From: Baffinella frigidus
Taxonomy: Eukaryota; Cryptophyceae; Cryptomonadales; Baffinellaceae
Length of the DNA: 27,389 nucleotides
Direction: 5' to 3'
Assembly: GCA_026770585.1 (NCBI GenBank)
Contig: MU646345.1
Span: 777,618-805,006 of the forward strand
Shown: one piece after another, positions 3,035 to 27,321 of the stretch
Position numbering within the stretch: position 1 is the stretch's first letter
How the letters are laid out: each line of letters begins with the position of its first letter
Position numbers and translations under genes: made by a program
Notes under the pieces: model-generated
The model's input: only the letters and a program-made list of their open reading frames with translations
What the model was told of the DNA's origin: nothing
The model's database searches: none

Positions 3035-3123
3035 CCCTAACCCCTAACACCGAACCCCGCCACTCCCAACCCGTACCCCTGATCCCGAAACCCGAAAACA
3101 TCAACAGGATATCCGAGGGGGTT

Positions 3124-3294: not shown

Positions 3295-3310
3295 CTGCAC
3301 CTTGTCGGAA

Positions 3311-4258: not shown

Positions 4259-4299
4259 GTTGTAGTTGTATTCCAGCAGCGACTCGATCGACCCCACCT

Positions 4300-4936: not shown

Positions 4937-4984
4937 CAGCAGCGACTGGATCGAACCCAACTGCTCAATCAGCCGATTGCGTAG

Positions 4985-5584: not shown

Positions 5585-6060
5585 GAATGGTTTGGGGGTT
5601 TATTGGTTAGGGGTTAGGGTTTGGGGATTAGGATGGTTTGGTGTTTGAGGTGAGTTTGTGGAGCTGCGTGTCGAGGATGATGTCGCATGTCTGGTTTCGG
5701 GTTTCGGGTCCAGGGTTCAGGGTTCAGGGTTGAGGGTTTGGAGTTTGTGGTTTAGGGTTTGGGGTTTAGGGTTTAGGATTTAGGGTTTGGGGTTCAGGGT
5801 TTGGGGTTTGGGGTTTAGGGTTTGGGGTGTGGGGTTTGGGGTGTGGGGTTCAGGGTTCAGGGTTTAGGGTTTAGGGTTCAGGGTTTAGGGTTTAGGGTTT
5901 AGGATTTAGAGTTTAGGGTTTAGGGTTTAGGATTCAGGGTTTAGGGTTTAGGGTTTAGGGTTTTGGGTTTAGTGGTTGGGGTTTGGTGTGTAGGTTTGGG
6001 GATCCAAGTTCCCGGAACTTTGATAGAACTTTAGGGTTTAGGGCTTAGGGCTTAGTGTGT
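5585..6060 (+). repeat. degenerate TTTAGGG / TTTGGGG array
   Basis: Mixed GGGTTTAGGG, GGGTTTGGGG and GGGTTCAGGG units, ending in a duplicated GTGTAGGTTTGGGGATC (5988, 6056). Confidence 0.9.
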
Positions 6061-6770: not shown

Positions 6771-6958
6771 ATAATAATATGGCAGACGGACCAAATAGAG
6801 CATGTTTTTTGAGCCATTTTCAGGTGAAAGCGCGCTACCTTCCATGCGTCGTTGAGCCGTTCGGAGACCTCGAAATGGTGGTGCCGAATCTGCGAGCAAT
6901 GTTGACTATTCTTAAGTTGACCTTATCTGCGTATTCTTAAGTTGATCTGCGAATCTGC

Positions 6959-8365: not shown

Positions 8366-8378
8366 GAGGTAGGATTTC

Positions 8379-9122: not shown

Positions 9123-9144
9123 TGAGACCTTACTCTCCTTGGCC

Positions 9145-9599
9145 GAGCCAGCCGAATTGTGCGACGCAGTGGAATCTTGCCGGGCCAGATCTTGCCGGTC
9201 CAGATTCCGCGCCGCGCCGAGCCGCTCCGTGCCCTGTCGATGCAGCGTCCTCTCCGTCCCTTCGCGGAAATCCCGGAGCGCTTCTTGGTGGATAGACCCC
9301 GGTTTCCTCTCCGGGTCCGTCGTTTCAGGCGGCGCCTCCCTCCCAGCGCTGGATATCTCCGACGTGTCATCGCGCGCCATGCGTGTCGGCGGTGGTATGT
9401 CCCGGACGGGCAAGGGGGGCTGGACTGCTGGCCCCTCTCCCTCTGCCTCTCGGTCTCTCTCTCCTACAGTCATGGCGTCGAAGCCGGGGACGTTGGAATG
9501 CATATCGGGCACATCATCCGGAAATAGCAGCTCTTCCCGGGTGGTCGGCCGCGCCTTCATGTCCGGAGATGGCGGAAGCGGCAGCTCACGGGTCCCCAT
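9145..9599 (-). CDS. possible exon of a divergent gene, function unknown
   Basis: Unrecognised. Read on the minus strand, an open frame begins MGTRELPLPPSPDMKARP just after an in-frame TGA. It continues for about 150 residues of hydrophilic, Pro/Arg/Glu-rich, probably disordered protein. The frame runs on to 9021, but its last ~30 codons lie in an inverted-repeat element (8935-9122), so the exon more likely ends near 9145 at GAGA|GTAAGG. The opposite strand is also open and Ser-rich, a warning that GC-rich composition alone may keep both frames open. No domain, signal or homologue is recognised. If real, it would be transcribed away from SAM50 with a shared upstream region. Confidence 0.35.
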
Positions 9600-10192: not shown

Positions 10193-10447
10193 ATGGACGC
10201 GGACGATCTCCGGAGTACTGCGCCACCGATGCCAGGCCAGGGGCAGAACCCGGACAAGCTGCTGTCGGTGCCGGTCAACGTGCAGCGCGTTTTCGTGCAC
10301 GGAAATGAGCGAACGAAGCGCGCACTGGTCGAGGCCGAGCTGGCCAACGCGCTCGCCGCACACACGCACCGGGATCTCGCCATCGAGCTCTCTATGGCGA
10401 CGCAGCGGCTCGAAGAGCTTGACATCTTCAAGAGCGCCGTGTGCGAG
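10193..10447 (+). CDS. SAM50: SAM50 exon 1: N-terminus and POTRA domain
   Basis: 85 codons. Residues 28-85 are a POTRA domain: VQRVFVHGNERTKRALVEAE, then an amphipathic helix ending LEELDIFKSAV, the classic R-T-(K/R)...E-L...L..L.IF..V pattern. The first 27 residues (MDADDLRS...) are polar and low complexity, as is usual for the cytosolic/IMS N-tail. An in-frame TAA lies 18 bases before the ATG. The donor is GAG|GTTTGT. An upstream exon is possible because CAG|GTAACA at about 10168-10176 looks like a donor, but no coding signal is needed there. Confidence 0.92.
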
Positions 10448-13400: not shown

Positions 13401-16400
13401 TCAGGTAATTCAACATAAGAACCACCAGCTACACTTTTTAATTTCGCAAAACTGAATGTGAAGTATCTTGGTGCTGTGGTACAAACCCGCCAACTTTGGA
13501 GCGGGAAAGAGCCTGTTCGTGGATTGGGGCAATGCGACCGAAACCCGAACCCCGAAATCTAGCTCTGCCTCACTCGGGTTGAACGACCACTCTCAAGTGG
13601 AGATGCTGGGTGTGCAGTGCAAATCCGCCAACTTCCCACTCGAGGCTAGAAATGTGACTATTTTAAAACAGGGTTTCGTTTTAAAAAGAGGCGTGTAGTA
13701 ATTTTCGCGCAAACGAGGGCGTTTGGTCACGTATCGGGCGGAATTTCGCCCGATACGTGACCACGCCTGCCCGTGACTGGTACTAAATTCAACAACCCCA
13801 CATTCAAAATAGTCCCATTTCTAGCCTCGAGTGGTCACAGCGGGAAAGCGCCCGTGCTCACCAAATTCGTGAGACCAAATCATACTGAGACAGAGCTGGG
13901 GATGAAATTTCTCTTACTGAGCGGCCGCACGCAGGGCGGGGAAGGCAATTTCGAGGTGGCCTGGACGCTCCGCAACTTCTTCGGCGACGGCGAAAAACTC
14001 CAGGTGTCTCTCACCACACAGCGGACTTCGAGGGGATTTTGGACAACCCCTGAGCGATAAAATCTAGGACCCTACAGTAGGCAACCCGTAGGGACATAGG
14101 GGGGTTCCTAGGGCTAAGGTAACGGAAACTCGGGGAAAGCTCCAGATTCGTGAGAGAACCACACGAGAACGCTACAGGGGCATATTTAAATGAGGAATTT
14201 TAAGATTTGTGCGGGTCACGTCCGGGACCGAACAGAAATTTTGGTGGGTGACCTTGGAGCCATTCAAAAATAATGCTGTAAGACAGACACGAGGTTGTTC
14301 AATCTGATCCGAAATCCGTGATCGTTTTTATAATGATCACGAATTTCGCATAGAAAGACGACGTCTCTAATTGTTTGAGGGGCGCAAGTCTTTTGATATA
14401 TTCTGGAAAGTTCTTTTCTTCTTCGACACAGTCCTTCAAAATCCTTTTTCGGCCGCGTATTTAAAATCTTTATCAGCCCTGACGGTTTTCAAAAGGTTCC
14501 TCTAGCGTTCTCGAGCGGAAGGTCCCAGTTTTGGGCCCCTTTCTTAAGTCCCAAAGTCAAGAAAAAGCTCAAATTCCCGCCACAAATCGGCCGCATCACT
14601 GAAAAGTGGCCGATGTGACGGGAATTTGAGCTTTTGTTGATTTTCTGACTTGAGAAAGGGGCCCAAAACTGGGAACTTCTCCATTTAGGGTTTCTCTCAC
14701 ACCAATCCTCCGAAGTGGACCAAATCGAGGATTTTGTTCGAGCCATTTCCAGGCGGCGGGCGTTCGAATTTCATCGCGTCCCTCCATAGATTATATCTCA
14801 GATTTCTGTGGGACTTGGAGCCATTCTGTACATGTAGAGTTTTAAAACTCTTCGATTTATTCCAGAAATCGTTTAGATGGACAGTTTCCGAGATATAATC
14901 TATCAAGGGGCCCGATGAAATTGTCTTTCCCGCCCTCTCCCGTTTTTGGAGTCCATCTACGCGTAAAGTTGACTCTGCCCTGGGAAACACGCTAAAAGTC
15001 GAGCCCTTTGAGCCCGTGCCATGCGCAACAACGCTTCGGCTGTACAACGAAACACATTTCGCACGAAACGTTGCGTTTGGCATTCGCACTTGTGACCTGG
15101 CGTGGCCTTGGCACACGCGTCCTCTTCTACTGCAAAGCCACAAGGGAAGTCTCAATTTCTCTGGACACGACACTATTGTTGCCTTTTGACGATTTTTGGT
15201 CATGTCCTTGGGGCAGAAATTGCCTTTTGAGGTGAAAATGGCTCCAAAGTAGCTGAAGCAAATGCTTCCGCTACTTTTTGAAACTTCCCCTGGGGCTTTC
15301 CAGTAGTTCCTCCTGGCGCTTCTGATCCAGAACGCCAATGGCTCCAAGGACGGGTCACGTGACTCCAGTATCCTCCCCAGAGCAATACCTCCATGGGGCA
15401 CACTACTTGTTCCTCTTCCTCCTGACTCTCCTGAACCAGGAAGCCCCGTGTCATTTTCTGAACAAGAATATCCCGAACCCTCTCTCCTGAACCAGAATAT
15501 CCCGAACCCTCTCTCCTGAACCAGAATATCCCGAACCTCTCTCCTGAACCAACATATCCCGAACCCTTTCCAGAGCAATGCTTCGATGGGGCACAAGACG
15601 TCCAACTCCTTCAAAGTCGACTTCTCGCGTCCTCTCTCGCACGGGTCCCGCCCATCAACCAACCTAAATCGAGTCATCCTCCAACCGCTATCGGATTGTA
15701 TGTACCTTCCAAAAGTTACTTCGCCCGGAGGAATCGCTGCGTTCTTTCCAAAAGTGGCCGATTTATGGTACACATGATAGAAAGACGCAAAATGTCCGAA
15801 TTCCGTTTAACCCCCTTCGGCGTAGACACCCGCCGTCACACTCGAGAATGCTGGAGGACCCTATTTACATGTGGGGCTGTAAGAATTTGTACCAGTCACG
15901 GGCGGGTTGGTCACGTGCCTGACTCCGTTTGAGTCAGGAACGTGACCAATCTCACGAAAGTTACTACACAAATACCCACTTGAAAAATCACCTCGATTTA
16001 AAATAGGGTCCTCTAGCATTCTCGTGTGGTCAACCAGCATCGTGTTTCACAGTCCCTTGACTCTTGTCGAAGCAGCACCGGGTTTAGACGAAATCCAGGA
16101 GGACGGCTAAACCCCCCGCAGGCCGTCTACCTGCAAAACCTAACAACTCAACGGTTTTTGTATTTCATAATACGTGAAGACAAACGCATGTCGACTGGCG
16201 TGCCCCATGCCCCGCCCCTTTTTGTTTCTAATTTTGACCAGTTGTACTTTGTTTCTATTTTTGACCAGTTTTAGTTTCTATTTTTGACCAATTCTATTTT
16301 TGACCGCGCCCCTCTTTGACCAGGTCTTCGACCAAAACACAACGTTTCCTGTATTTTACAATACTTAACAAAGGCACACGTTGCATGGCGTGCCCCCTCT

Positions 16401-19400
16401 GCTCAGCCCCTTTTTCTCCAGTGTCTCTTTTTGACCAGGTTGTGACCATTCCGCGCCCCTCGTTGACCAGTTCTTTTTTCAGTTCTTTTTTTAACCGCGC
16501 CCCTGTTTGACCAGTTCCGCGGCGCGCTTTTCGTCGACGCTCTTCCAGTCAGTCGCGAACCTGACCAAGTACTCGTCGTTCCGCGAGCGCCAGCGCGGCG
16601 TCGCGGTGCGTGACCCGCTTAACGCCGTTCTGTGACCCTCTTAACGCCGTGCTGCGACCCTCTTAATACCGCTCCAGAACCTTCCAGCGTATGATTAATT
16701 CCGCTCCAGAACCCTCCAGCGGTGCGTGGCCCGCTCATCTTCGCATACGTTGTATACTTGGTGATATACGACTCTGGGCAGGTCCCTCGAGATTATCTTC
16801 TCTCTCGTGTGACCTCCCCAGCGCCCACCTCTCACCACCTTGTGACCCTCCTACATCGTCGTTCTGCGACTCTCTTAACGCCGTTCTAGAACCTTCTAGG
16901 GCACTCTCGAACAGACACCAGAGGCGTCGCTGACGCTGGACACAGCTGGTAAAAGCTCGGGGTTGAGGCAAATCTCAATACAGAAACAGATTTCAGTTGC
17001 ACCCCCTTTTTGCTATCGTGGGGTGGATTGTGTGCTATCCACTTAGCAGCCACGGGGGGCTTCACGGATACAGTCCCTCTAAACGATTTGTACTATAATC
17101 GTATCCATTGCCCTGGAACTTAACCGGAACTTCACCTTGAATTCAAGGCGAAAAGAAACCCGGCCGCTGCTAAGTGGGGTACAGCTATGTCGAGGGCAAA
17201 ATAGCGAATTCCTCCCTTAAGATAGCACGACACGGTCTTTTAAACCGAACCTGATTCTACATTAGGGGTGCGGTTAGCGCCTAGGCCCCCCTGCCACGCC
17301 AGAGTCTCGCAAGGGGTCGCCAAAAGTCAATTTCCCCTCAAGGCAGCGGTTTTCAAAAGTCAAAGAACCTTATCAGAAAGGTTTAAAAAAAATCAACACC
17401 TCAACCACTCTGGCGTGGTGCCTCCCCCCACCACACGAGGCTACCTATGCGAACAGAATAAATGTCGATTGTAAACGTGTGTAGTAATTTTCAGCTAAAA
17501 AGCAGCGACTTTACACAGGTCCGACCGCTCAGCTGGCGGAAACGTGATCATTCGCCCACAAAACTTTAAAAGTCCGTTTTATTCTGTTCGCCTGGGTAGC
17601 CTCGTGTGGCATCTCGACTCCTGGCTCGTGCGCGGTCGTGCGCGGACAACCCGAACATGTTTTTCATGAATCTGTTTTTCCAACACAATTAATCAGTTTC
17701 CCCTCAAAATGGATCTGTTTTTCCTCGTTAGATCCCGGCACGCTGCGACCCTCGTTGACGGATTCTGGTACTAATCCGTTAACCTTGGGGGGGGGGGGGT
17801 AGGGTTTGGTTTGGGGTTTGGGGTTTGGAGTTTGGGGTTTGGGGTTTGGGGTGAAAACCACTCTTAACGGTAGGATCCTGGCGTGTGGTAGATTGCGCTG
17901 ACGAGCGTGCTAGACGGCGCCGGGAACCTCCTCCACCAGGAGTAGAGGAAGAATCCTGGACTCTAGAACGTTCTAGAACCTTCTAGAACCTTCTAGAACC
18001 TTCTAGAACCTTCTAGAACTTTCTAGAAGCGCTGGGGTGATGCGAATCCCGGCGTGCGGCAGGTTGCGCTGACGAGCGTGCAAGACGGCGACGGGAACCT
18101 CCTTTACCAGAAGTAGAGGAAGAATCCTGGATTCTAGAACCTTCTAGAAGCGCTGGGGTGATGCGAATCCCGGCGTGCGACAGGTTGCGCTGACGAGCGT
18201 GCAAGACGGCGACGCGTCGCACGAGGTGCACTACGAGGGCGTCTGGCGCTCTGTCACTCAGGTCCCCCCCCATTCCCCGAAACCCTGAATTCGAAAACCG
18301 AAAACCGAAAAACCGAAACCCGAAACGTGCAGGGCCCTCTGCACAGACCACGCAGGGCTGGAGGGGGTATTCAAAAGTCATTTTTGATGGGAAAACTTTC
18401 TCAAAAGTCATTTTTTAGCACAAAAACGGCTCCAAGAACGAGGAAGCGGCTCCAAGAACGAGGAAGGAATACCCCACCCAAGGGCCTGGAGTGGTTGGCA
18501 GTCACGCGGGGCGATGGTGTGTCTGGTGCAATCGAGACACTGCGAAGACGTGCCACACAGCGGACTTTGAAGAGATTTCGAATAACCCCTAGGCGATAAG
18601 ACCTAGGACCCTATGGTAGGCAGCCCGTAGGGACATAGGGGGGGTCCTACGGATAAGGTAACGGAAAGGTGGCCCAATTTGGGCCTAAAATCACCTTGTA
18701 GCCCGCTGTGTGGCTTTGCAACTCTCTGGGTTGGCTGGGGTGCCACACAGTGGGCTTCGAGGGTTTCGTTGGGGCCGGAATTCCGGGTGTTGCGTTGCCA
18801 ATTTGCATCAAAAAATCCTTGAGGTTAATTGTCTTCAGGCAAACTGACTTTTGATGAAAGGTTCGCAGTCCACCGTGTGGTGTGCCCTCCCCCGCCAGTG
18901 ACTCGCAAGGGTTTGCACACACACCTGAACGCTTAAATATTGTTTTTGTCGCTAAACGCTGAATCCCGGGGCCCGGCAGTCGCGCGGGGCGATGGTGTGC
19001 CGCCCAGATGAGGCAGGGGACTCCTTCAAGTCCAGGTGCTCTTCCTCAGCCTCAATCTCTTCGAAACGAGCCTCAAACTTAACTAGAACAGGGCCCAGTT
19101 TCGGGCCCCTTTCCCAAGTCCGAAAGTCAATTCCTGGTACAAAATTTAGAACTCCAAGATCTTTTAAACTCCTCAAAATGATTCTCCTCAAAACGAGGAG
19201 ATCAGAAGTTTGTTTCCCTGGTTTGCGGTGCACGCCCGTCGAATTTTTCAGTGGTGATATTGGGGAGGTCACACGAGAGAGAAGAGAATCTGGCAGGGGC
19301 CTCCTTCAAGTCCAGGTGCCCCTCCTCCACACAGCGGACTTGGAAGGGATTTTGAACAACCTTCAAGCGATAAGACCTAGGACCCTAGGATAGACAACCC

Positions 19401-22400: not shown

Positions 22401-25400
22401 CAAGTAAAAGTCAACTGGGCGAACACTTGAGACATTGTCTGAAAAATGTTAATTGCGTGTGGCAGGGGGTGCACCTGCGGAGCACGACGGTTTGAAACCA
22501 GCTTACTTTTGTCAAGTGGTTTGGGTGTGGCCGGCTTTTGTAAAGTGGTTTGGCGGCAGGGGATGTATCTGAGGAGCACGACGGAGCTGGCGGGGCTCGG
22601 CGGCGACGTCCGCTTCCTCAAAGCCCAGGTCTAAACCCTTAACCTTAACACAGCATACAAAATTCTAACACACAAAATCTTAACGCAGCATACAAAATCC
22701 TGACACAGCATGCAAAATCCAACAAAACATACCAAAATCCTAACACAACATACAAAACCCTAACACAACATACGACACCCGAACACAACATAAAAAATCC
22801 TCCCGCAACATACGAACTCCTATCACAACATACGAAATCCGGGGATGTATCTGAGGAGCACGACGGAGCTGGCGGGGCTCGGCGGCGACGTCCGCTTCCT
22901 CAAAGCCCAGGTCTCTGTTACGATTTTGTACGTTGTGTTAGACTTTAGAGACGTGAGACGTGAGATGTGAGACGTGAGTCTTCTGGGCGGTCTTCTGGGC
23001 GGTCCTCTGGGGGGGCCGCGGGGCTTGGCGGCGACGTCCGCTTCCTCAAAGCCCAGGTCTAAACCCTAAACCCTAAACCTTAAACCCTAAACCCTAAACC
23101 CTAAACCCTAAACCCTGAACCGAAACCCTGAACCCTAAACCCTAAACCCTAAACCCTAAACCCTGAACCGAAACCCGAAACCCCAGACCGGAGACCCGAA
23201 ACCCGAGACCTGAAACACGAAACACGAGACCCGAAACCCGAAACCCGAAACCCTAAACCCTAGACTCTAAACTCTAAACCCTAGACCCTCAACCTTCAAC
23301 CTTAAACTCTAAACCCTGAACTCGAAACCCGAAACCCTGGACCCTAAACCCTGCACCCTAAACCCGAAACCCTGAACCCTGAACCCTAAACCCTAAACAC
23401 CAAACACCAAACCCTAAACCCTAACCTTGAAGTTGGACTCGCAGCTGCATGCCTCAGTCCTTCTATTCTCTGACTTTTAATTATGTATCAGAAAATGGAT
23501 TGTAAATAATTAATGTTGTACCAGAAAATGGGTTGTAAACGCGTACAACTATTTTACGCAGGAGGACTCGCAGCTGCATGCCCTACTCCTTCTATTCTTT
23601 TACTTTTAATAGTGTACCAGAAAATGGGTTGTACATAATATAATGAATTTTGTGCCATACAATGGATTGTAAACGCTTACATCCATTTTATGCAAGCGGA
23701 CTTGCAGCTGTAGATGGCGCTGTCGTGAAGCAATGTCAAAAGTTGACGGTACTGGCACCCAAAGTTGACGGTGCTGGCACTAAAAGTTGACGGTGCTGGC
23801 ACTGAGCTGTCAACTTTTGCAGGTGCACTCGCAGTTGCACGCGCAGACGAACATCGGGGTCAACCTCTCGCTCATCAATCCTTAGTCCGATTCTCTGAAT
23901 ATCCGTCTATTCTATCGATGTCCTTCTACTCTCTGCCTCATTGGTCCTTCTATTCTCTGACTGGGTTGTGAACGCGTACATCTATTTTATGCCGACGAAC
24001 ATCGGGCTCAACCTCTCGTCCTTCTATTCTCTGACTTTTAAATGTGTACCAGAAAATGGGTTGTAATCGCGTACATCTATTTTATTCGTGTTGTTTTGCG
24101 TTTTTTTGCAGGTGGATTCGCAGCTACACGCGCAGACCAACATCGGGGTCAACCTCTCGCTCATCAATCCTTAGTCCTCCTATTCTCTGAATGTCCGTCT
24201 ATTCTCTGAATGTCCGTCTATTCTTTGACTCGTTGGTCCTTCTATTCACTGACTGGGTTGTAAACGCGTACATCTATTTTATGCTAGTTTTTTGCAGGTG
24301 GATTCGCAGCTGCACGCGCAGACAAACATCGGGGTCAACCTCTCGTCTTTCTATTCTCTGACTTTTAATTATGTACCAGAAAATGGGTTGTAATCGCGTA
24401 CATCTATTTTATTCGTGTTGTTTTGCGTTTTTTTGCAGGTGGATTCGCAGCTGCACGCGCAGACCAACATCGGGGTCAACCTCTCGCTCATCGGCTCCTT
24501 CGGCCTCCTCCAGGTGCTCTTCTTTCTTCTTTATTACTCTTTATTGCTCGAACCGTTGCGTCTTTCGGACGCGACGACGTGTCTGACCCGTGTCGTGTCC
24601 GTGAAACGACGTGGTTTATGCTGTTGTGCCCGCGAATCGTTACTTCTTTCGGACGCGATAGCGTGTCTTTCCCCGGTCGCGTCCGCGAAAACAGGCACTC
24701 GGGGGGGGACCTTTCCCGCATTTAACGACCGTTTCTCTCTCGGCTTGACGGACTATTCACAACTTGACATCCTGGGTGTGCGGTGCAAATCTGTCAACTT
24801 TGGCGCGGAAAAGAGCCCCGTCTCACGAAACTGGTGAGACCGAATAACCCCCGAACAGGCGTCCGGGGGGGGGGCTTTCGCGCATCAACGACCGCAGGGA
24901 CGTGCGCACTGAATACACACCTCCTCGCGGACGTGTTTCCTGAAAATCACAACTCCTCGCGGACGTGCACACTGAAAACCACAACTCTCCGTGGAAACCG
25001 CAACTCTTCGCACACTGAAAAATGCACCTGTTCCGAACAGGCGCTCGGGGGGCACCTTTCGAGAACCAACGACTGTTTCTTCGTTGTGGAGGGTCCCTGG
25101 TCCGGAACAATTTTCGGCGTTTAGGTCCTGTGATCTTACAAGGCCTTCGAACAGGCACTCGGGGGGGACCTTTCGAGAATCAACGACCGTTTCTTCGTTG
25201 GCGGACCTCTCGCCATGCGCGGCTTCCGCACCAAGGTCTCTTTCCCGCGCCAAAGTTGTCGGATTTGTACCGGAAGCCCCGCGTGTCAACTTTAGAATAG
25301 TCCGTCAACCCGAGTCTCGCCCCGCCTCAGTCTTTTTTAGCTTGCCAATTTGGTGAGCCCGGGCTGTTTCCCGCGCCAAAGTTGAATGACTTGCACCGCG

Positions 25401-26500
25401 AAGCCAGCGTGTCGACGTGAGAATAGTCGGTGTCAACTTGAGAATAGGCAGTTAACTCAAGAATACTCGGTCGGCCCGAGTGGGCTCTCGTCAACCCTAA
25501 ACCCGAAACCTTAAACCCCAAACCCCAAACCCCAAACCCCAACCCCCAAACCCTGAATCCTACACCCTACACCCCAAACCCTGCACCCTAAACCCTGAAC
25601 CCTACACCCTAAACCCTGGACCCCAATCCCTAACCCAGCGGCCGACACTGCCCCTACCATCGAAGCCTTCACGCTCGACTCTTCATCGTACTTCGACGAT
25701 TCAGTGAAACCCTAAACCCCAACCCCGTTCCGCGTCGCAGGGACTCGGTGCGCGGGTGTCAGGGGCAGGCGCCGCGTTCAATCTCCATACACGTATTAAT
25801 TAATTGCTGTTGGGCAACGAAAATTACTACATGATTTGCTCATAAAAAAATAGTAGAGCATTTGTGTAGTAAATTTCGTTGCGCCAGAAGCAATTGATTA
25901 GTGCTTATGTGGAGATGGCGTTAGGATATCCGTAGGTCCAGCCTATGCCCCTACGGTCCTGCCTACCGTAGGACCCTAAGGAATGTTCACTGATGGGTTA
26001 TTCGGCAGGGGCTCGGTCCGCGTGTGTCAGGAGCAGGCGCCGCATCCGGGGCCAAGGGGGGTGGGCGCGTTCTTGAAATTTACTACACACACATTATCTG
26101 TGCCGGATTCTTTCCGCGTGGACCAAAGGCGAAACAAACGCGAAACCCGCTCTCTAACTCTAACCCCGTGCCTCGGTCGTGCGTGGCAGGGGCTCGGTCC
26201 GCGTGTGACAGGAGCGGGCGCTGCGTCCGGGGCCAAGGGGGGGGGCGCGTTTTCATCTCATCATCATTTGTGCCTGATTTTTTTTTTTGAAGGGGCGAAA
26301 AGACGCGAACACCTCTCGCTCACCACGTGTGGGGGGGTGGTAGGGGCTCGGTCCTATGGAATGTTCACTCATGGGTTACTCGGCAGGGGCTCGGTCCGCG
26401 TGTGTCAGGAGCGGGCGCCGCGTCCGGGGCCAAGGGAGGGGATGCGTTTTTCACGCTGGGCGCCTCCGCTGCGTTCCCGCTCCCGTCGCGCTTGCTGCAG
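10193..26500 (+). CDS. SAM50: SAM50/SAMM50 (Omp85 family) gene, 13 exons, 3' end outside window
   Basis: Core subunit of the mitochondrial outer-membrane sorting and assembly machinery, which inserts beta-barrel proteins such as porin and Tom40. Exons: 10193-10447, 10644-10682, 11625-11684, 13935-14003, 15574-15672, 16549-16605, 18184-18261, 18980-19035, 21122-21176, 22560-22628, 24439-24513, 25155-25235, 26387-26500. They join without a stop into about 369 residues: a short N-terminus, one POTRA domain (about residues 28-110), then the bacterial-surface-antigen barrel. Spacing between conserved blocks agrees with my recollection of human SAMM50: 28 residues from the F-x-x-P block to the S-S block, and 18 residues in the exon 8 segment. 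All introns are phase 0 except the phase 2 one between exons 8 and 9, where AG+C makes the second Ser of SFKS-S. Family length is about 470, so roughly 90-100 C-terminal residues are missing. Start: first ATG after an in-frame TAA 18 bases upstream. Family and order are near certain; single splice sites could shift by a few bases. Confidence 0.93.
10644..10682 (+). CDS. SAM50: SAM50 exon 2 (13 codons)
   Basis: Micro-exon encoding VDLMPGGKDDAVQ between GTGCAG and CAG|GTGTCC, phase 0 at both ends. It continues the POTRA third strand after IFKSAVCE, where the family has a short acidic/Gly loop before the last POTRA strand. No long open frame marks it; it is found only by homology and phase. Confidence 0.88.
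10693..10828. mobile_element. inverted repeat in intron 2
   Basis: CCAGCCCTCAGAGTGGGAG ... CTCCCACTCTGAGGGCTGG, perfect 19-base ends, starting 10 bases after the exon 2 donor. Confidence 0.85.
10832..10930. mobile_element. TCAAGTGCCCA-ended element, copy 1
   Basis: TCAAGTGCCCATAGG ... CTACTGGGCACTTGA with GGGCCCTACCGTAGGGCGTA inside. A second copy is at about 12922-13025. Confidence 0.75.
10964..11107. mobile_element. 144-bp near-perfect palindrome in intron 2
   Basis: Arms of about 63 bases (GCCAGCGAGGTACTTA; CCTACGGATTGCCTACGGTA; GTCCTACGACTTTT) around a short T-rich loop. The outer GCGAGGTAC word links it to family A. Confidence 0.9.
11164..11300 (+). repeat. 29-bp tandem repeat
   Basis: Five near-identical units of TAGAAAACTCAACCCCTAAA + GAAAACTGC, leading into CCCTAAA-type DNA. 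Confidence 0.9.
11301..11620 (-). repeat. degenerate CCCTAAA array abutting exon 3
   Basis: CCCTAAACCCTAAACCC variants run up to four bases before the exon 3 acceptor CAG. The stretch 11367-11490 is present inverted at 12171-12295. Confidence 0.9.
11625..11684 (+). CDS. SAM50: SAM50 exon 3 (20 codons)
   Basis: Encodes IDVRVEEKGLHTLSTGTYMQ, the last POTRA strand (V-x-V-x-E-x) and the first barrel strand (L-S-T-G-T-Y). The acceptor is GGGGGCAG and the donor CAG|GTCCGA, phase 0. It sits directly downstream of a 300-base CCCTAAA-type array and inside the loop of a large inverted duplication (about 11367-11490 with 12171-12295). Confidence 0.92.
11718..11975. mobile_element. half family E element, then family D copy with perfect hairpin
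   Basis: 11718-11770 is the inverse left half of family E (GACTTTTGGCGGCCCCTTCC). 11795-11975 has ends CCACACGAAGCTATCCATGC / GCATGGATAGTCTCGTGTGG with a perfect 19-bp-arm hairpin GATCACGTTTCCGTACGGA (11876-11915) in the middle. Confidence 0.8.
12010..12310 (+). repeat. TTTAGGG-type array, inverted duplicate of 11367-11490
   Basis: 12171-12295 reads as the reverse complement of 11367-11490, including irregular words such as GTTCATGGTTCATGGTTCAG. A 58-base direct repeat (GGTTGGGGGTTTGGACTGCG...) occurs at 12104 and 12290. Confidence 0.9.
12640..12830. repeat. repeat shared inverted with 26797-26890
   Basis: GGCAGGCTCGTGAACGCCCG, CGCGTGACCGGTCACGCG and GACTGCCTTGCGTGT occur in inverse order and orientation at 26797-26890. 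GCTTCTGATTGCAGAGGCAC is duplicated directly (12643, 12798). Confidence 0.85.
12922..13025. mobile_element. second copy of the 10832-10930 type element
   Basis: Shares GGTCCTAGGGCCCTACGGTA, GCCTACTGGACACTTGAGGG and overall length. Confidence 0.7.
13026..13334. other. no gene; hairpins in intron 3
   Basis: Holds GACCCCATAGTCTAGGGGTC (13070) and a near-perfect hairpin AAAACGCTCAG-AAT-CTGAGCGTTTT (about 13231-13255) between two AAGTTGACAC words. Confidence 0.5.
13335..13468 (-). pseudogene. remnant of a virus-like / Polinton-like ORF in SAM50 intron 3
   Basis: On the minus strand about 45 codons are open: ...FAKLKSVAGGSYVELPEW, then MNNKTAIVNIKNDD, then C-x-CF. The pattern S-Y-(V/I)-x-L-P ... 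K-x-A-I-V/I-N-I/P-x-N-x-D-x-x-C-F is, from memory, a block found in large proteins of virus-like DNA elements (Polinton/Maverick and relatives), next to endonuclease and polymerase regions. The piece is AT-rich with AT-ending codons, unlike the GC-rich SAM50 exons. It has no start or stop of its own and abuts another repeat at about 13470, so it is a fragment. Family assignment is tentative. Confidence 0.55.
13469..13770. repeat. family K copy and perfect GGTCACGTATCGGGCG hairpin
   Basis: GTACAAACCCGCCAACTTTG (about 13480) and GTGCAAATCCGCCAACTTCC (about 13616) are inner duplicates. A perfect 16-bp hairpin (13725-13740 with 13747-13762) follows. Confidence 0.65.
13935..14003 (+). CDS. SAM50: SAM50 exon 4 (23 codons)
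   Basis: Encodes GG-E followed by GNFEVAWTLRNFFGDGEK and LQ. This is the family signature E-G-x(4-6)-L-R-N-x-x-G-x-G/A-E-K of the second and third barrel strands. The acceptor is ACGCAG and the donor CAG|GTGTCT, phase 0. The frame stays open into flanking DNA, which is accidental. Confidence 0.93.
14018..14130 (+). mobile_element. family P element, left part (CCACACAGCGGAC)
   Basis: CCACACAGCGGACTTCGAGG, GATTTTGGACAACCCCTGAG, CCCTACAGTAGGCAACCCGT. Full copies with the GCCCGCTGTGTGG right end lie at 18552-18718 and 19326-19492; other partial ones at 4814 and 21188. Confidence 0.75.
14280..14515. other. no gene; AT-rich intron DNA with hairpin
   Basis: GAAATCCGTGATCGTTTTTA / TAATGATCACGAATTTC hairpin at about 14309-14348; otherwise nothing recognised. 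Confidence 0.4.
14518..14677. mobile_element. 160-bp palindromic element in intron 4
   Basis: GGTCCCAGTTTTGGGCCCCT ... AGGGGCCCAAAACTGGGA, with AAAGCTCAAATTCCCG and a GGCCGATGTG centre. A half copy is at about 19090-19130. Confidence 0.85.
14785..14905 (+). mobile_element. element H copy 2
   Basis: ATAGATTATATCTCAGATTT ... CCGAGATATAATCTAT, same inner GAGTTTTAAAACTC as 6630-6770. Confidence 0.85.
14930..15370. other. no gene; intron 4 remainder
   Basis: A hairpin AAGTAGCTGAAGC...GCTACTT lies at about 15246-15278. The 358-codon minus-strand frame that crosses this area (14697-15773) contains repeat elements H and the exon 5 complement and has no recognisable domain. Confidence 0.4.
15381..15401 (+). 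pseudogene. truncated SAM50 exon 5 copy
   Basis: CCCCAG then AGCAATACCTCCATGGGGCA is the diverged start of exon 5 (SNTSMGHT), which hits TGA after 14 codons. Confidence 0.75.
15425..15572 (+). repeat. 34-bp tandem repeat before exon 5
   Basis: Four units of CTCTCCTGAACCAGAATATC + CCGAACC. The last unit supplies the CTTTCCAG acceptor of exon 5. Confidence 0.9.
15574..15672 (+). CDS. SAM50: SAM50 exon 5 (33 codons)
   Basis: Begins SNASMGHKTSNSFKVDFSRP, the barrel segment in which the family has G-T/H-K-x-x-x-S-x-x-x-x-F-x-x-P. It ends ...STNLNR. The acceptor is CTTTCCAG; the donor CGA|GTCATC is weak, chosen because it keeps phase 0 and gives the 28-residue spacing between the F-x-x-P block and the S-S block of exon 6 that I recall for the human protein. 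An earlier donor (CACGG|GTCCCG) would break the frame. Confidence 0.82.
15673..16548. other. SAM50 intron 5: hairpin and TTTGACCAG minisatellite
   Basis: GGTCACGTGCCTGACTC pairs with GAGTCAGGAACGTGACC at 15909-15948. From about 16155 to 16525 the DNA is pyrimidine-rich with repeated TTTTTGACCAG and CCGCGCCCCT words, including two diverged copies of ACGGTTTTTGTATTTCATAA. Confidence 0.7.
16549..16605 (+). CDS. SAM50: SAM50 exon 6 (19 codons)
   Basis: Encodes SVANLTKYSSFRERQRGVA, matching the family segment (S-V-N/A-x-x-K ... S-S-x-R-E-x-x-R-G) of a barrel hairpin. The acceptor is CTCTTCCAG and the donor GCG|GTGCGT, phase 0. A pyrimidine-rich TTTGACCAG minisatellite precedes it. Confidence 0.87.
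16606..17000. repeat. intron 6, 5' part: copies of the exon 6 donor region
   Basis: GCGGTGCGTGACCCGCT at the exon 6 end recurs as GCGGTGCGTGGCCCGCT at about 16719. CTTAACGCCGTTCT and CCGCTCCAGAACC are repeated between and after. Confidence 0.65.
17004..17215. repeat. imperfect inverted repeat in intron 6
   Basis: TTTTTGCTATCGTGG ... CCACTTAGCAGCC pairs loosely with GCTGCTAAGTGG ... AAAATAGCGAA. Confidence 0.55.
17294..17418 (+). mobile_element. MITE family E copy 3
   Basis: CCACGCCAGAGTCTCGCAAG ... CCACTCTGGCGTGG. Confidence 0.85.
17429..17610. mobile_element. family D copy 3
   Basis: CCACACGAGGCTACCTATGC ... GCCTGGGTAGCCTCGTGTGG. The middle differs from 11795-11975 and includes a GTGTAGTAATTTTC fragment. 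Confidence 0.75.
17795..17855 (+). repeat. GGGGTTTGGGGTTTGG tract
   Basis: Poly-G run followed by degenerate TTTGGGG units. Confidence 0.85.
17892..18157 (+). repeat. two truncated exon 7 copies and a TTCTAGAACC array
   Basis: Exon 7 5' copies at 17892-17919 and 18063-18092 are each followed by GGGAACCTCC and GTAGAGGAAGAATCCTGG. Between and after them TTCTAGAACC is repeated (17965-18030, 18134-18150). Confidence 0.9.
18184..18261 (+). CDS. SAM50: SAM50 exon 7 (26 codons)
   Basis: Encodes VALTSVQDGDA followed by SHEVHYEGVWRSVTQ. The S-H-x-(V/L)-x-(W/Y)-x-x-x-W-R block is one of the clearest mitochondrial Sam50 signatures. The acceptor is GCGACAG and the donor CAG|GTCCCC, phase 0. Two truncated copies of its 5' part lie upstream at 17892-17919 and 18063-18092. 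Confidence 0.93.
18502..18521 (+). pseudogene. truncated SAM50 exon 8 copy (5' part)
   Basis: GGCAG then TCACGCGGGGCGATGGTGTG matches the first 20 bases of exon 8 with one change. Confidence 0.85.
18552..18718 (+). mobile_element. family P element in intron 7
   Basis: CCACACAGCGGACTTTGAAG ... TAGCCCGCTGTGTGG, about 167 bp, with internal GTGGCCCAATTTGGGCC hairpin. Confidence 0.85.
18743..18881 (-). mobile_element. element F copy 3, inverted
   Basis: GCCACACAGTGGGCTTCGAG ... GCAGTCCACCGTGTGG. Confidence 0.8.
18980..19035 (+). CDS. SAM50: SAM50 exon 8 (18 codons plus 2 bases)
   Basis: Encodes SRGAMVCRPDEAGDSFKS, then AG completing a codon with exon 9. It matches the family segment S-R-x-A-x-x-x-x-R-x-E-x-G-x-S-x-K-S at equal length. 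The acceptor is CCCGGCAG and the donor CAG|GTGCTC. This is the only phase 2 donor found. A copy of its 5' part (18502-18521) lies upstream and one of its 3' part (about 19291-19315) downstream. Confidence 0.88.
19036..19325. other. intron 8, first part: exon 8 3' copy and repeat fragments
   Basis: GGCCTCCTTCAAGTCCAGGT (about 19299) repeats the exon 8 end and donor. A fragment of the 14518 element lies at about 19090-19130 and a CTCCTCAAAACGAGGAG hairpin at 19184. Confidence 0.7.
19326..19492 (+). mobile_element. family P element in intron 8
   Basis: CCACACAGCGGACTTGGAAG ... GAGGCCCGCTGTGTGG, very close to 18552-18718. Confidence 0.85.
19693..19832. mobile_element. MITE family B copy 4
   Basis: TTATCCGGGGAAACCTATTT ... 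AAATAGGTTTCCCCGGATAA, 140 bp, nearly identical to 7291-7430. Confidence 0.9.
19854..19976 (-). mobile_element. element F copy 4, inverted, left end lost
   Basis: GAGGGTTTCGTTGACCCCGG ... CGTAGTCCACCGTGTGG. Confidence 0.75.
20371..20508. mobile_element. TTACTACAC-core palindrome, outer arm type 6
   Basis: ATATGAAAACGGTTTCGATT ... TTAAAACCGTTTTTATAT around ATTACTACACG / CTGTGTAGTAA. Confidence 0.8.
20605..20900. repeat. ATACCATAT / ATAGTAT microsatellite pair
   Basis: 20605-20740 is (TACTATA/TACCATA)n; 20812-20900 is the roughly complementary (TATAGTA)n, so the two tracts can pair around the exon 9 copy at 20783. Confidence 0.8.
20962..21108. mobile_element. TTACTACAC-core palindrome with tandem core, in intron 8
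   Basis: AGATTTGAAACATTTCGGCA ... TTCATTGAAATCGTTCT. The ACGATCTTTACTAGTAAT half-core is duplicated. It separates the 34-base exon 9 copy from the intact exon. Confidence 0.75.
21122..21176 (+). CDS. SAM50: SAM50 exon 9 (1 base plus 18 codons)
   Basis: The first base completes Ser (AG+C), then IRHNFTFDRRDDPRLPEQ follows: the family motif H-x-x-x-x-D-x-R-(D/N)-x-x-x-x-P. The acceptor is GGGAGCAG and the donor CAG|GTGATT. At least five truncated copies precede it between 20016 and 20961, and an internal fragment follows at 21859-21879. Confidence 0.94.
21294..21419 (-). mobile_element. MITE family E copy 4, inverted
   Basis: CCACGCCAGAGTGCAGGAGG ... CCAAGATTCTGGCGTG. Confidence 0.85.
21425..21551 (+). 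mobile_element. element related to 6490-6612, complete
   Basis: CCACGCCAGAGGGATCG ... CAGTCTGGCGTGG; carries CCACGTCAGATCTTACGTGG. Confidence 0.8.
21900..22500 (+). repeat. tandem units with truncated exon 10 copies
   Basis: Units of about 65-70 bases, CGGCTTTTGTAAAGTTGATT + GCGTGTGGCAGGG + exon 10 start, recur near 21920, 21990, 22070, 22115, 22135, 22200 and 22445. Copy 22245-22305 contains 61 of the 69 exon bases; the others stop after 10-30. Confidence 0.9.
22560..22628 (+). CDS. SAM50: SAM50 exon 10 (23 codons)
   Basis: Encodes GMYLRSTTELAGLGGDVRFL then KAQ. E-L-A-G-x-x-G-G-D-V-x-F-x-K is the most characteristic Sam50 barrel motif. The acceptor is GCGGCAG and the donor CAG|GTCTAA, phase 0. 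A near-complete upstream copy (22245-22305) lacks the donor half; a full-length downstream copy (22842-22911) lacks an AG acceptor. This copy has both sites and is therefore chosen. Confidence 0.93.
22650..22840 (+). repeat. CCTAACACAACATACAAAAT minisatellite
   Basis: About nine diverged units of roughly 20 bases in intron 10. Confidence 0.9.
22842..23062 (+). pseudogene. downstream copies of SAM50 exon 10
   Basis: 22842-22911 is a full exon 10 copy with donor CAG|GTCTCT but preceded by ATCC instead of an AG acceptor. About 23020-23062 repeats its last 40 bases and donor, CAG|GTCTAA. Confidence 0.9.
23058..23428 (-). repeat. degenerate CCCTAAA array in intron 10
   Basis: CCCTAAACCCTAAACC with ACCCGAAACCCGAAA variants; it starts directly at the donor of the exon 10 3' copy. 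Confidence 0.9.
23432..24345 (+). pseudogene. seven truncated SAM50 exon 11 copies
   Basis: Copies at 23432, 23562, 23698, 23823-23885, 23993-24018, 24112-24174 and 24298-24345. Most are followed by TCCTTCTATTCTCTGACTTT, and several by GTACCAGAAAATGGGTTGTA and TACATCTATTTTAT. Copies at 23823 and 24112 have GCAG acceptors and read in frame to LINP then TAG. Confidence 0.92.
24439..24513 (+). CDS. SAM50: SAM50 exon 11 (25 codons)
   Basis: Encodes VDSQLHAQTNIGVNLSLIGS and then FGLLQ, the barrel strand after ELAG..FLK. The acceptor TTTTTTTGCAG is the best polypyrimidine tract in the gene; the donor is CAG|GTGCTC, phase 0. Seven truncated copies lie upstream in 23432-24345. This is the only copy that reaches the donor. 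Confidence 0.93.
24514..25154 (+). repeat. intron 11 with truncated exon 12 copies
   Basis: ACAGGC(A/G)CTCGGGGGG-type exon 12 starts at 24695, 24859 and 25041. They run progressively further into the exon and differ in G-run length. A family K fragment lies between the first two (24745-24850), and GACGTG(C)ACTGAAAAC repeats between the second and third. Confidence 0.88.
25155..25235 (+). CDS. SAM50: SAM50 exon 12 (27 codons)
   Basis: Encodes ALGGDLSR, then INDRFFVGGPLAMRGFRTK. D-R-F-x-x-G-G-x-x-x-x-R-G-F is the Omp85 signature of the conserved L6 loop region (RGF), needed for barrel-assembly function. The acceptor is GAACAG and the donor AAG|GTCTCT, phase 0. Three imperfect copies precede it (24695, 24859, 25041), none with both an open frame and a donor. 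Confidence 0.95.
25236..25490. repeat. two family K copies in intron 12
   Basis: CCGCGCCAAAGTTGTCGGAT and CCGCGCCAAAGTTGAATGAC start two tandem copies, each with GTCAACTT-GAGAATAGTCGG repeats. Confidence 0.75.
25494..25730 (-). repeat. CCCTAAA / CCCCAAA array
   Basis: Degenerate telomere-like units, interrupted at 25640-25695 by unique GC-rich DNA. Confidence 0.85.
25741..26354 (+). pseudogene. four truncated upstream copies of SAM50 exon 13
   Basis: Starts at 25741 (40 bases), 26009 (about 64), 26190 (about 65) and 26343 (12), each GGGCTCGGTCCGCGTGTG-like; the first three are preceded by CAG. The first is cut by the palindrome 25781-25916 and the second by GAAATTTACTACACAC. Confidence 0.92.
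25781..25916. mobile_element. TTACTACAC-core palindrome, outer arm type 3, copy 2
   Basis: ATCTCCATACACGTATTAAT ... TTAGTGCTTATGTGGAGAT; close to 7630-7767. It directly follows a 40-base exon 13 copy. Confidence 0.88.
26387..26500 (+). CDS. SAM50: SAM50 exon 13 (38 codons), last exon in window
   Basis: Starts GLGPRVSGAGAASGAKGGDA and continues FFTLGASAAFPLPSRLLQ: the family's G-(L/I)-G-P-R, G-G-(D/E)-A and F-P-L-P blocks following RGF. The acceptor is CGGCAG and the donor CAG|GTCCCG, phase 0. It has partial copies on both sides. The remaining C-terminal strands were not found before 27389. Confidence 0.94.
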
Positions 26501-26526
26501 GTCCCGCATCCGATGTTCCGGGTTTA

Positions 26527-26752
26527 GGGTTTGGGGTTTATCAGAGTTTGATTGGGGGTTGATTGGGGGTTGATTGGGTATTGATTGGGGGTTGATTTGG
26601 GGTTGATTTGGGGTTGATTGGGGGTTTAGTGGGGTTTAGTGGGGTTGGTTAGGCGTTGCCCCTCCCAACGCCTCCCAACGCCTACGCCTAACCAACCCCA
26701 CTAAACCCCACTAAACCCCAATCAATCCCCAATCAACCCCCAATCAACCCCC
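26527..26752. repeat. inverted TTGATTGGGGG arrays
   Basis: GGGTTGATTGGGGGTTGATT and TTTAGTGGGGTTTAGTGGGG on the left mirror CCACTAAACCCCACTAAACC and CCCCAATCAACCCCCAATCA on the right around AACGCCTCCCAACGCCT. Confidence 0.9.
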
Positions 26753-26756
26753 TCCC

Positions 26757-26908
26757 GTCGCGTTTGCGGCACGTGCTGTGCGGTTTTATGAGACTTGAGG
26801 CGCACACGCAAGGCAGTCACCTCGGACAGTTGGCTTCGGCGTCCGCGTGACCGGTCACGCGGGCGCTCACGAGCCTGCCGGCGGGGCACCGCACGGCACG
26901 TGCCGCAA
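26757..26908. mobile_element. inverted-repeat element carrying the 12664-12755 sequence
   Basis: CGTTTGCGGCACGTGCTGTGC pairs with GCACGGCACGTGCCGCAAACG at the ends, and an 18-bp perfect palindrome CGCGTGACCGGTCACGCG (26844-26861) lies inside. It is inserted within an exon 13 3' copy (CGTCGCGTTTGC). Confidence 0.8.
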
Positions 26909-26913
26909 ACGGT

Positions 26914-27250
26914 CGCGTTCTTTACGCTCGGCGCCTCTGCTGCGTCCCCCCCCCCCGTCGCGTTTGCTGCAGGTTACCTTCCTTTGCCTCACTCTAGTCC
27001 CAACCCTGAATAGATTTAACTTCGGGATTTAACTTCGTCCCCCCCCCCGTCGCGCTTGCTGCAGGTGACGTCCGATAATTTTACGCGAAATAACTTTTGT
27101 CAAGGTCAGCGAAATAACTTTGTCAAAGTTGTTGCGGGAAATAACTTTGAATGGGGGAATGCTGCTATAGCAGAAGGGTACATCCGATGTGTAGGTTTTG
27201 GGGTTTGGGGTTTGTTAGGCGTTCCCTGTTCCGTCGCGTTTGCTACATGT
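26914..27250 (+). pseudogene. downstream copies of the 3' part of SAM50 exon 13
   Basis: 26914-26972 (TTTACGCTCGGCGCCTCTGC ... GCTGCAG|GTTACC), 27048-27064 (CGTCGCGCTTGCTGCAG|GTGACG) and 27233-27250 (CGTCGCGTTTGCTACATGTG). They shrink with distance and carry the donor, not the acceptor. An AAATAACTTT-rich stretch lies at 27075-27150. Confidence 0.88.
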
Positions 27251-27267
27251 GACGTCTGATGTGTAGG

Positions 27268-27321
27268 GTTGAGGGTTGAGGGCTAGGGGTTAGGGGTTAG
27301 GGGTTATTATCAACAAGGAGT

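What the first reader, a model, noticed from the sequence alone, without database searches (positions are those of the whole stretch)
15381..27250. Exon 'echoes': truncated copies flank most SAM50 exons with a fixed polarity
Seen: for exons 5, 7, 8, 9, 10, 11, 12 and 13, upstream copies begin with the intron acceptor and stop inside the exon. Downstream copies, where present (8, 10, 13), begin inside the exon or lack the acceptor and end with the donor. At exons 9 and 12 the copies lengthen toward the real exon. Repeat elements often fill the gap between copies. Inference: each event (element insertion, break repair or template switch) duplicated a stretch spanning the exon edge, leaving one broken and one intact copy. 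Intron growth would then be driven by repeated partial exon duplication. I do not know this as a described class of gene architecture.
Basis: partly seen in the sequence, partly recalled or inferred. Interest (0 to 1): 0.88.

Follow-up and report, generated by a model that had tools for sequence, protein, structure and literature searches.

The report
Broken exon copies fill algal introns
In this alga most exons tested are flanked inside their introns by short broken copies of their own edges, which look like a fossil record of repeated local DNA duplications that lengthened the introns while one intact exon was kept.

Summary
The SAM50 splice model matches a transcript-derived protein at 100%. 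Four genes on this contig (36 exons) hold 83 local exon 'echoes' at 25 exons; 82 are in the same orientation. Of 75 direct echoes keeping exactly one splice site, 74 have the stated polarity (43 upstream with acceptor, 31 downstream with donor); none keeps both. HMM-chosen ABC-transporter exons on seven other contigs show direct local copies in 5 of 8 cases. The polarity follows from topology: a duplicated block crossing one exon edge must leave a truncated upstream (acceptor) or downstream (donor) copy if one exon stays intact. Most events look like other DNA placed between two copies of a 25-104-nt block, as in staggered-break repair or template switching. The gaps are not richer in repeats than introns at large. 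A uniform-rate simulation with the real exon and intron lengths gives 34 echoes (sd 6), against 83, so exon edges seem over-represented; why is open. Related processes are published; the block length, the exon edges and the density appear new. Host: probably a cryptophyte.

The parts
10193..10447 (+). SAM50 exon 1, no echo found
10644..10682 (+). SAM50 exon 2, no echo
11625..11684 (+). SAM50 exon 3, no echo
13935..14003 (+). SAM50 exon 4, no echo
15574..15644 (+). SAM50 exon 5 (intact)
15364..15402 (+). upstream echo of exon 5, acceptor + 22 nt
   Evidence: E 1e-5
16515..16605 (+). SAM50 exon 6, no echo
18184..18261 (+). SAM50 exon 7 (intact)
17875..17922 (+). upstream echo of exon 7, acceptor + 31 nt
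18038..18093 (+). upstream echo of exon 7, 98% identical; same junction as the farther copy
18980..19035 (+). SAM50 exon 8 (intact)
18497..18521 (+). upstream echo of exon 8, acceptor + 20 nt
19292..19327 (+). downstream echo of exon 8, 24 nt + donor
21122..21176 (+). SAM50 exon 9 (intact)
20559..20593 (+). upstream echo of exon 9 (20 nt)
20771..20811 (+). upstream echo of exon 9 (29 nt), lies between inverted TATAC arrays
20916..20961 (+). upstream echo of exon 9 (34 nt), 96%; separated from the exon by interspersed-repeat DNA
22560..22628 (+). SAM50 exon 10 (intact)
22000..22040 (+). upstream echo of exon 10 (12 nt)
22132..22180 (+). upstream echo of exon 10 (25 nt)
22217..22305 (+). upstream echo of exon 10 (61 nt)
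22461..22490 (+). upstream echo of exon 10 (25 nt)
22841..22914 (+). downstream copy of all of exon 10 with donor but without acceptor, 100% identical over 74 nt: the youngest-looking event
23018..23076 (+). downstream echo of exon 10, 39 nt + donor
24439..24513 (+). SAM50 exon 11 (intact)
23552..23581 (+). upstream echo of exon 11 (20 nt)
23815..23876 (+). upstream echo of exon 11 (54 nt)
23991..24018 (+). interior fragment of exon 11, no splice site
24087..24181 (+). upstream echo of exon 11 (71 nt)
24288..24345 (+). upstream echo of exon 11 (48 nt), 98%
25155..25235 (+). SAM50 exon 12 (intact)
24690..24736 (+). upstream echo of exon 12 (40 nt)
24852..24894 (+). upstream echo of exon 12 (35 nt)
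25034..25086 (+). upstream echo of exon 12 (46 nt)
26387..26500 (+). SAM50 exon 13 (intact)
25737..25777 (+). upstream echo of exon 13 (37 nt)
25984..26074 (+). upstream echo of exon 13 (65 nt)
26185..26253 (+). upstream echo of exon 13 (64 nt)
26748..26774 (+). downstream echo of exon 13, 25 nt + donor side, weak
   Evidence: E 1e-3
26915..26974 (+). downstream echo of exon 13, 57 nt + donor
27033..27066 (+). downstream echo of exon 13, 32 nt + donor
27219..27270 (+). downstream echo of exon 13, weak (74%)
9129..9599 (-). gene 2 exon G1, no local echo at E<=1e-3
6839..6889 (-). gene 2 exon G2, no echo
5284..5327 (-). gene 2 exon G3 (intact)
5648..5707 (-). upstream echo of G3 (acceptor + 43 of 44 nt)
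5032..5077 (-). gene 2 exon G4; only matches through its minisatellite flank
4208..4297 (-). gene 2 exon G5 (intact)
4937..4963 (-). upstream echo of G5 (24 nt)
3994..4066 (-). downstream echo of G5, 48 nt + donor
3806..3845 (-). downstream fragment of G5, stops 8 nt before the exon end
3301..3342 (-). gene 2 exon G6 (intact)
3576..3613 (+). INVERTED upstream copy of G6 with acceptor: the only inverted local echo at E<=1e-3
2995..3035 (-). downstream echo of G6, 33 nt + donor
1277..1345 (-). gene 2 last exon G7 (intact; stop codon follows)
1073..1108 (-). downstream echo of the G7 end
876..904 (-). downstream echo of the G7 end; abuts palindromic element 741-875

Best explanation
The echoes are remnants of many small local duplications that lengthened shorter introns. 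In a typical event a break, nick pair or stalled fork at or near an exon edge was repaired so that a block of about 25-100 nt ended up on both sides of other DNA (palindromic elements, minisatellite or unique filler; the gaps now have a median of about 130 nt). If the block crosses the acceptor edge, the upstream block becomes 'acceptor + truncated exon' and the downstream block completes an intact exon; across the donor edge the mirror case results. Other outcomes break the gene and are lost. Each echo has at most one splice site, so it should be ignored when exons are recognised by paired sites, and it drifts. Later events at the same edge push older copies outward, and some arrays were re-amplified by plain tandem duplication. 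Shown: polarity, orientation, locality, short blocks, gap DNA mostly not part of the duplicated unit, the gradient of length and identity with distance, presence in several genes and contigs, and that the matching proteins use the intact exons. Inferred: the enzymology (fill-in of staggered breaks or template switch), shorter ancestral introns, and selection as the filter. Unexplained: echoes at exon edges are about 2.4 times as many as a uniform process predicts.
For: 83 local echoes at E<=1e-3 in 25 of 36 exons of four genes; 82 of 83 direct; 74 of 75 one-splice-site copies with right polarity; 0 with both sites; nearer copies longer (39 vs 14 pairs, 9 ties, p 0.0024) and more similar (46 vs 16, p 0.001). 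In simulation, tandem topology gave 20000 of 20000 right; random local capture gave 4952 right, 4979 wrong and 10069 inverted of 20000. DNA next to the truncation point recurs on the far side of the echo in 13 of 74 with short repeats masked and 23 of 74 unmasked, against 20 of 150 masked control segments, so most events put other DNA between the copies. By eye about nine pairs of copies share a junction, leaving roughly 65 distinct junctions, with no common filler end. Other contigs: 5 of 8 HMM-chosen exons with direct copies, 0 inverted (exon edges were not fixed there, so polarity was not scored). The matching proteins are built from the intact exons.
Against: A uniform-rate simulation with the real exon and intron lengths gives 33.9 echoes (sd 6.4, max 55 in 100 runs) against 83 observed; gene 2 fits (6.3 vs 8), SAM50 (11.9 vs 29), the transporter (9.5 vs 28) and Yip1 (6.2 vs 18) do not. 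Deletion turnover made the fit worse; only an assumed 60% of events without filler came near (74.4, sd 12.8), which clashes with the observed gaps. A cruder earlier run (18.6, sd 5.4, per 13-exon gene) had suggested agreement and is superseded. At >=92% identity exon queries have 0.81 local copies against 0.30 for introns, or 0.10 with echo stretches avoided, more than the roughly twofold detection advantage of a conserved exon (inference). No empty allele or close relative was available. 23 of 74 echoes carry the plain tandem-unit signature, and arrays M2, M4, Y5, Y6 read as ordinary tandem arrays. One echo has wrong polarity (M2, patch A 12899-12977), one is inverted (G6), one displaced Y2 copy lies about 5 kb away.
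Confidence: 0.58

Rival explanations
1. Plain tandem duplication (slippage or unequal exchange) of a unit made of intron plus exon part, with mobile elements and minisatellites entering the gaps later.
For: Same polarity is forced. Shared junctions, read by eye, at E7, E10, M2, M4, M6, Y2, Y4, Y5, Y6 and tandem units. 23 of 74 echoes show the unit signature when minisatellites are left unmasked. A high share of events without filler is the only tested setting that comes near the observed number.
Against: In 39 of 51 non-minisatellite cases the gap DNA is not found on the other side of the echo, including young copies such as E9 20916 (96%) and Y5 1393 (93%). Homology often stops a few nt beyond the splice site instead of running into the intron. 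Gaps have a median of 130.5 nt.
Confidence: 0.27
2. A mobile element family that inserts in exons and makes long target-site duplications (introner-like).
For: Interspersed-type DNA fills nearly all of some gaps (E9 148 nt, E12 115 nt, G6 257 nt, M4 105 nt, Y5 163 nt).
Against: Fillers have no common ends in the listed junctions, and 34 of 82 gaps are at least 25% interspersed repeat versus 87 of 150 control segments. As read by eye, one palindromic family in the window has 4-nt and another TA target duplications. Some published introner families show 3-9 bp target duplications (PMC9860276, passages).
Confidence: 0.05
3. Repair-mediated capture of nearby DNA (synthesis-dependent strand annealing) dropping exon pieces at random nearby breaks.
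For: Local, short copies; a described process in vertebrates (PMC2671141); one inverted and one displaced copy fit it.
Against: Simulated with random place and orientation it gives about half inverted, and half of the rest with wrong polarity; observed 1 of 83 inverted and 1 of 75 wrong.
Confidence: 0.03
4. The echoes are functional: kept as splice decoys or regulatory pseudo-exons.
For: 75 of 82 direct echoes keep one splice site, and those of SAM50 lie in the introns beside their exon (coordinates). Their number exceeds the uniform simulation, which retention by selection could also cause.
Against: Identity and length fall with distance, as for drifting debris; 7 of 82 keep no splice site. 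No RNA evidence was available either way.
Confidence: 0.04
5. Assembly artefact.
For: Highly repetitive region.
Against: Copies differ from the exon (median identity 89%, range 70-100%), occur in four genes and on other contigs, and all 18 SAM50 matches in the assembly are at this locus.
Confidence: 0.02

Closest known systems
Internal direct repeats in newly gained Daphnia introns, read as repeated staggered double-strand breaks (PMC4202315; [quoted passage not shown]
   Same: Direct repeats around inserted DNA; repeated breakage proposed to lengthen introns.
   Different: Repeats shared with an adjacent exon are 4-12 bp there; here blocks are 25-104 nt and carry splice sites and exon pieces. 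Established Daphnia introns show significant internal repeats in only 16.2%.
Small tandem duplications from fill-in of break ends (PMC8355091; abstract and introduction read)
   Same: Short (<100 bp) direct duplications at breaks; same topology.
   Different: Those are tandem; here a median of 130.5 nt of other DNA separates the copies.
Repair-mediated duplications in vertebrates (PMC2671141; abstract, Results part 1 and passages read)
   Same: Short local duplications that include exons and splice sites.
   Different: 824 proximal events in the human genome include two complete and two partly duplicated exons; here 83 copies around 36 exons, with fixed polarity.
Intron gain by tandem genomic duplication of AGGT-bearing exon segments (PMC3443670; passages read)
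   Same: Local duplication of exon DNA creates intron DNA.
   Different: That model makes a new intron inside an exon; here existing exon edges are copied into existing introns.
Introners (PMC9860276; passages read)
   Same: Palindromic elements in introns.
   Different: No shared filler end was seen; blocks far longer than the 3-9 bp target duplications of some introner families.

Membership tests
Staggered-break repeat growth of introns (Daphnia type) | Direct repeats flanking inserted DNA | tested here: met
   82 of 83 echoes direct; gap DNA mostly not duplicated
Staggered-break repeat growth of introns (Daphnia type) | Repeats of 4-12 bp shared with the adjacent exon | tested here: not met
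   Block length 25-104 nt, median 47; the search could not see repeats as short as 12 nt
Small tandem duplications by fill-in | Duplication shorter than about 100 bp | tested here: met
   Alignment lengths 25-104 nt; some flanks were cut at 25 nt by the query, so a few blocks are longer
Small tandem duplications by fill-in | Copies directly adjacent | tested here: not met
   Gaps 18-859 nt, median 130.5 nt, 82 gaps
Repair-mediated duplication (SDSA capture) | Copy placed at a nearby break irrespective of orientation and side | tested here: not met
   1 of 83 inverted, 1 of 75 wrong side versus simulation
Tandem genomic duplication intron gain | New intron bounded by the two copies of an AGGT-bearing exonic segment | tested here: not met
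   For the echoes found: upstream copies carry the acceptor edge of the following exon, downstream ones the donor edge of the preceding exon; none with both
Introner | Many introns share one sequence family end to end | tested here: inconclusive
   Only filler ends were compared: no common one in the listed junctions; 34 of 82 gaps partly interspersed. Whole introns were not compared genome-wide
SAM50 / Omp85 (host gene) | Omp85 domain | tested here: met
   PF01103 E 1.5e-35, 123.7 bits, cut-off 24

The most novel reading that the evidence does not exclude
In this lineage exon edges themselves are hotspots: a transcription- or splicing-linked process (for example co-transcriptional nicks at exon boundaries) repeatedly breaks and refills DNA at splice sites with 25-100-nt duplications, so that introns grow outward from exon edges and most genes carry an ordered record of it.
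Probability: 0.27. Interest if true: 0.87.

Novelty: new variant of a known kind. Interest (0 to 1): 0.73.

Why it matters
How introns become long is usually inferred from transposon content. Here an exon, fixed by selection, acts as a landmark that makes otherwise unreadable local duplications countable, oriented and roughly ordered in time. A genome in which 25 of 36 tested exons carry such a record would let the size, rate and polarity of short duplication-insertion events be measured directly, would test the staggered-break model of intron growth, and would show whether exon edges break more often than other DNA. It also warns gene finders: unused, partly coding pieces with real splice sites lie beside most exons tested here.

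Tried and rejected
Uniform process as a full account: a first simulation seemed to fit SAM50, but a truer one with real gene dimensions, growth confined to the gene and the detection limit of 25 nt gives 34 against 83, and turnover or a 30% share of filler-free events does not close the gap. I therefore withdrew the claim that exon targeting is unnecessary and raised the novel case from 0.13 to 0.27, interest from 0.70 to 0.73, and lowered the best explanation from 0.62 to 0.58. Repeat enrichment in gaps: not found. A single mobile element: no shared filler ends. Programmed-elimination pointers and classic AGGT intron gain: polarity does not fit (inference). Rows dropped before the main count: of 106 rows at E<=1e-2, 18 with E>1e-3 and 5 not local (G4 minisatellite flanks 3, displaced Y2 copy 1, Y6 match in another patch 1). 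Of 14 ABC_tran matches I left out six on C122, C16 and C62 with long open frames (196-936 aa) before looking at repeats. and a note spoke of 77 kb; most flanking letters were N, so only about 41 kb was readable. Organism: no 18S result was obtained; 'cryptophyte' rests on Guillardia theta being the closest named hit (59%).
Full report
What is there. The window is part of contig C43 (777618-805006) of an unnamed 382-Mb assembly in 1364 contigs. It holds a SAM50/Omp85 gene on the plus strand (PF01103, E 1.5e-35). I read 13 exons by hand; the spliced product matched P0001, named by its source as an MMETSP transcript, at 100% identity over all 371 aa. A second gene lies on the minus strand: its seven exons (G1-G7) each match P0038, an unnamed 271-aa protein from a 1320-base contig; that contig lacks the introns, so it is presumably a transcript (inference). 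The last 81 aa of P0001 were not found in the readable flanking DNA; much of the flank is withheld. All 18 matches of P0001 in the assembly lie at this locus.

Checking the observation. Each exon with 25 nt of flank was compared with the window on both strands. Shuffled exons gave 0.4 hits per set of 20 exons. SAM50 copies lie within 1 kb of their exon. The youngest-looking event is a 74-nt, 100% identical copy of exon 10 at 22841-22914 that keeps the donor but not the acceptor.

Other genes. Of 250 kb fetched around the window 43.5 kb was readable, in three patches. A codon model trained on the two window genes was run over them. Two clear further genes appeared, in patches A and B; repeated pieces were already visible in that listing, and a gene-like run in patch C was left out. 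The first is a major-facilitator transporter whose exons match P0040, also named as an MMETSP transcript; ten exons (M2-M11) were used, the ends of the gene being outside the patch or unmapped. The second is a Yip1-family gene mapped by homology only (six exons, Y1-Y6). Echoes occur at 13 of these 16 exons (none at M3, M11, Y1). Outside this contig I used Pfam ABC_tran to choose exons without regard to repeats: of 14 matches I took 8, in 7 stretches on 7 contigs, leaving six with long open frames. Direct local copies occur at 5 of 8: 13 copies overlapping the match by at least 10 nt, none inverted. The three without are two in a stretch with 501 of 3985 letters withheld and one in a full stretch. 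Polarity was not scored there because exon edges were not fixed.

Pooled numbers. Of 106 rows at E<=1e-2, 83 are local with E<=1e-3 (SAM50 29, gene 2 8, transporter 28, Yip1 18), in 25 of 36 exons. One is inverted (G6, upstream). Of 82 direct ones, 43 are upstream with acceptor, 31 downstream with donor, 1 upstream with donor (wrong), 7 have neither site, and none has both. Grouped by exon and side, 35 of 36 groups are right. Aligned lengths are 25-104 nt (median 47), identity 70-100% (median 89%), distance 69-860 nt. Within exon sides the nearer copy is longer in 39 pairs, shorter in 14, tied in 9 (p 0.0024), and more similar in 46 against 16 (p 0.001).

Why the polarity is fixed. If a block crossing the acceptor edge is present twice in direct order, the upstream one must be the truncated one and the downstream one continues into the rest of the exon; the donor edge is the mirror case. 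Simulation: 20000 of 20000 right for tandem topology; 4952 right, 4979 wrong and 10069 inverted of 20000 for random local capture. So the polarity speaks against scattered insertion of exon pieces but does not point to a special device. It also means that each one-site echo should be invisible to recognition of exons by paired sites (inference).

What lies between the copies. If the unit were intron plus exon part, the DNA next to the truncation should recur beyond the echo. It does in 13 of 74 with short tandem repeats masked (control 20 of 150) and in 23 of 74 unmasked (12 of 51 outside minisatellites). So some arrays are plain tandem (read as such at M2, M4, Y5 and Y6; about nine pairs share a junction by eye), but most events placed other DNA between two copies of a short block. 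That DNA has no common ends in the listing and is no more repeat-rich than introns in general: 55 of 82 gaps against 112 of 150 controls have at least 25% interspersed, hairpin or minisatellite sequence; interspersed alone 34 of 82 against 87 of 150; minisatellite alone is commoner, 31 of 82 against 30 of 150. Two G7 echoes abut the ends of palindromic elements (read by eye; one is seen).

Are exon edges targeted? Introns also carry local direct repeats: within 15381-27250, 40% of unmasked intron bases against 63-65% of exon and edge bases; over the whole window 24% against 34-41%. With matched queries, exons have 2.36 local direct copies against 1.09 for introns (0.38 when echo stretches are avoided); at >=92% identity 0.81 against 0.30 (0.10). 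An exon diverges from its copy on one side only, which by itself roughly doubles the detectable span (inference). I then simulated insertions with 25-104-nt target duplications falling uniformly, with gap lengths taken from the data. A first version (75-nt exons, introns grown from 60 to 1270 nt) gave 18.6 echoes (sd 5.4) per 13-exon gene and suggested rough agreement with the 29 of SAM50. A truer version with the real exon and intron lengths and a 25-nt detection limit gave 33.9 (sd 6.4) for all four genes, maximum 55 in 100 runs, against 83; longer ancestral introns lowered it to 27.9 and 23.5. Adding deletion turnover lowered it further; a 30% share of events without filler raised it to 44.0, and a 60% share to 74.4 (17 of 60 runs reached 83), but that share fits poorly with the observed gaps. 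So under these models exon edges carry about 2.4 times the expected echoes. Re-amplification of arrays, hotspots at exon edges, retention by selection, or wrong gap lengths in the model could each cause this; the data do not decide.

Comparison with what is known. The nearest published idea is repeated staggered breaks in young Daphnia introns, with repeats of 4-12 bp shared with one adjacent exon and a proposed passive growth of intron length (PMC4202315, passages and one section read). Small tandem duplications by fill-in at breaks (PMC8355091, abstract and introduction) share topology and size but not the filler. Vertebrate repair-mediated duplications (PMC2671141, parts read) include two full and two partial exons among 824 events. 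Direct repeats of 4-30 bp at intron borders in 213 introns are reported in PMC11782384 (abstract only seen). The listings (titles and abstract starts, open-licence papers only) showed no description of this architecture; that is weak evidence of absence, because most subscription papers are not held.

Verdict. Real, dense and seen on six contigs; best read as the trace of frequent short duplication-insertion events filtered by the need for an intact exon, with an unexplained excess at exon edges. Known kind of process, new in block length, density and legibility as far as I could search.

Noticed in passing
window 1-9599 minus strand: Second gene (271 aa; its match P0038 has no precomputed Pfam domain) with the same exon echoes.
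   Followed up: yes
window 3576-3613: The only inverted local echo at E<=1e-3 (exon G6, acceptor side), suggesting an occasional fold-back or inverted template switch.
   Followed up: partly
patch A (L003-L005 trimmed) 12899-12977: Only wrong-polarity echo: 3' part of transporter exon M2 with donor, upstream of the exon; may be a complete copy that later lost its 5' part.
   Followed up: no
patch B (L018-L020 trimmed) 1995-2024: A piece of the Yip1 exon Y2 echo with neighbouring minisatellite sits inside the intron before exon Y5, about 5 kb away: echoes can be moved.
   Followed up: no
window 741-875, 2461-2600, 7298-7432, 19690-19835: Palindromic element family with long matching arms and 4-nt target duplications (read by eye).
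   Followed up: partly
window 165-295, 503-625, 1690-1810: Second palindromic family (TACAGGGGTACCTCGCTC...) with TA target duplications (read by eye).
   Followed up: no
window 5100-5990, 11330-11620, 23060-23430: Long interstitial TTTAGGG-like minisatellites inside introns.
   Followed up: no
patch C (L024+L023 trimmed) about 10587-11077: Gene-like run with near-duplicate coding pieces, possibly another echo.
   Followed up: no
window 10193-26500: Most SAM50 introns are phase 0 and most exons end in AG (often CAG), with little donor consensus beyond GT.
   Followed up: no
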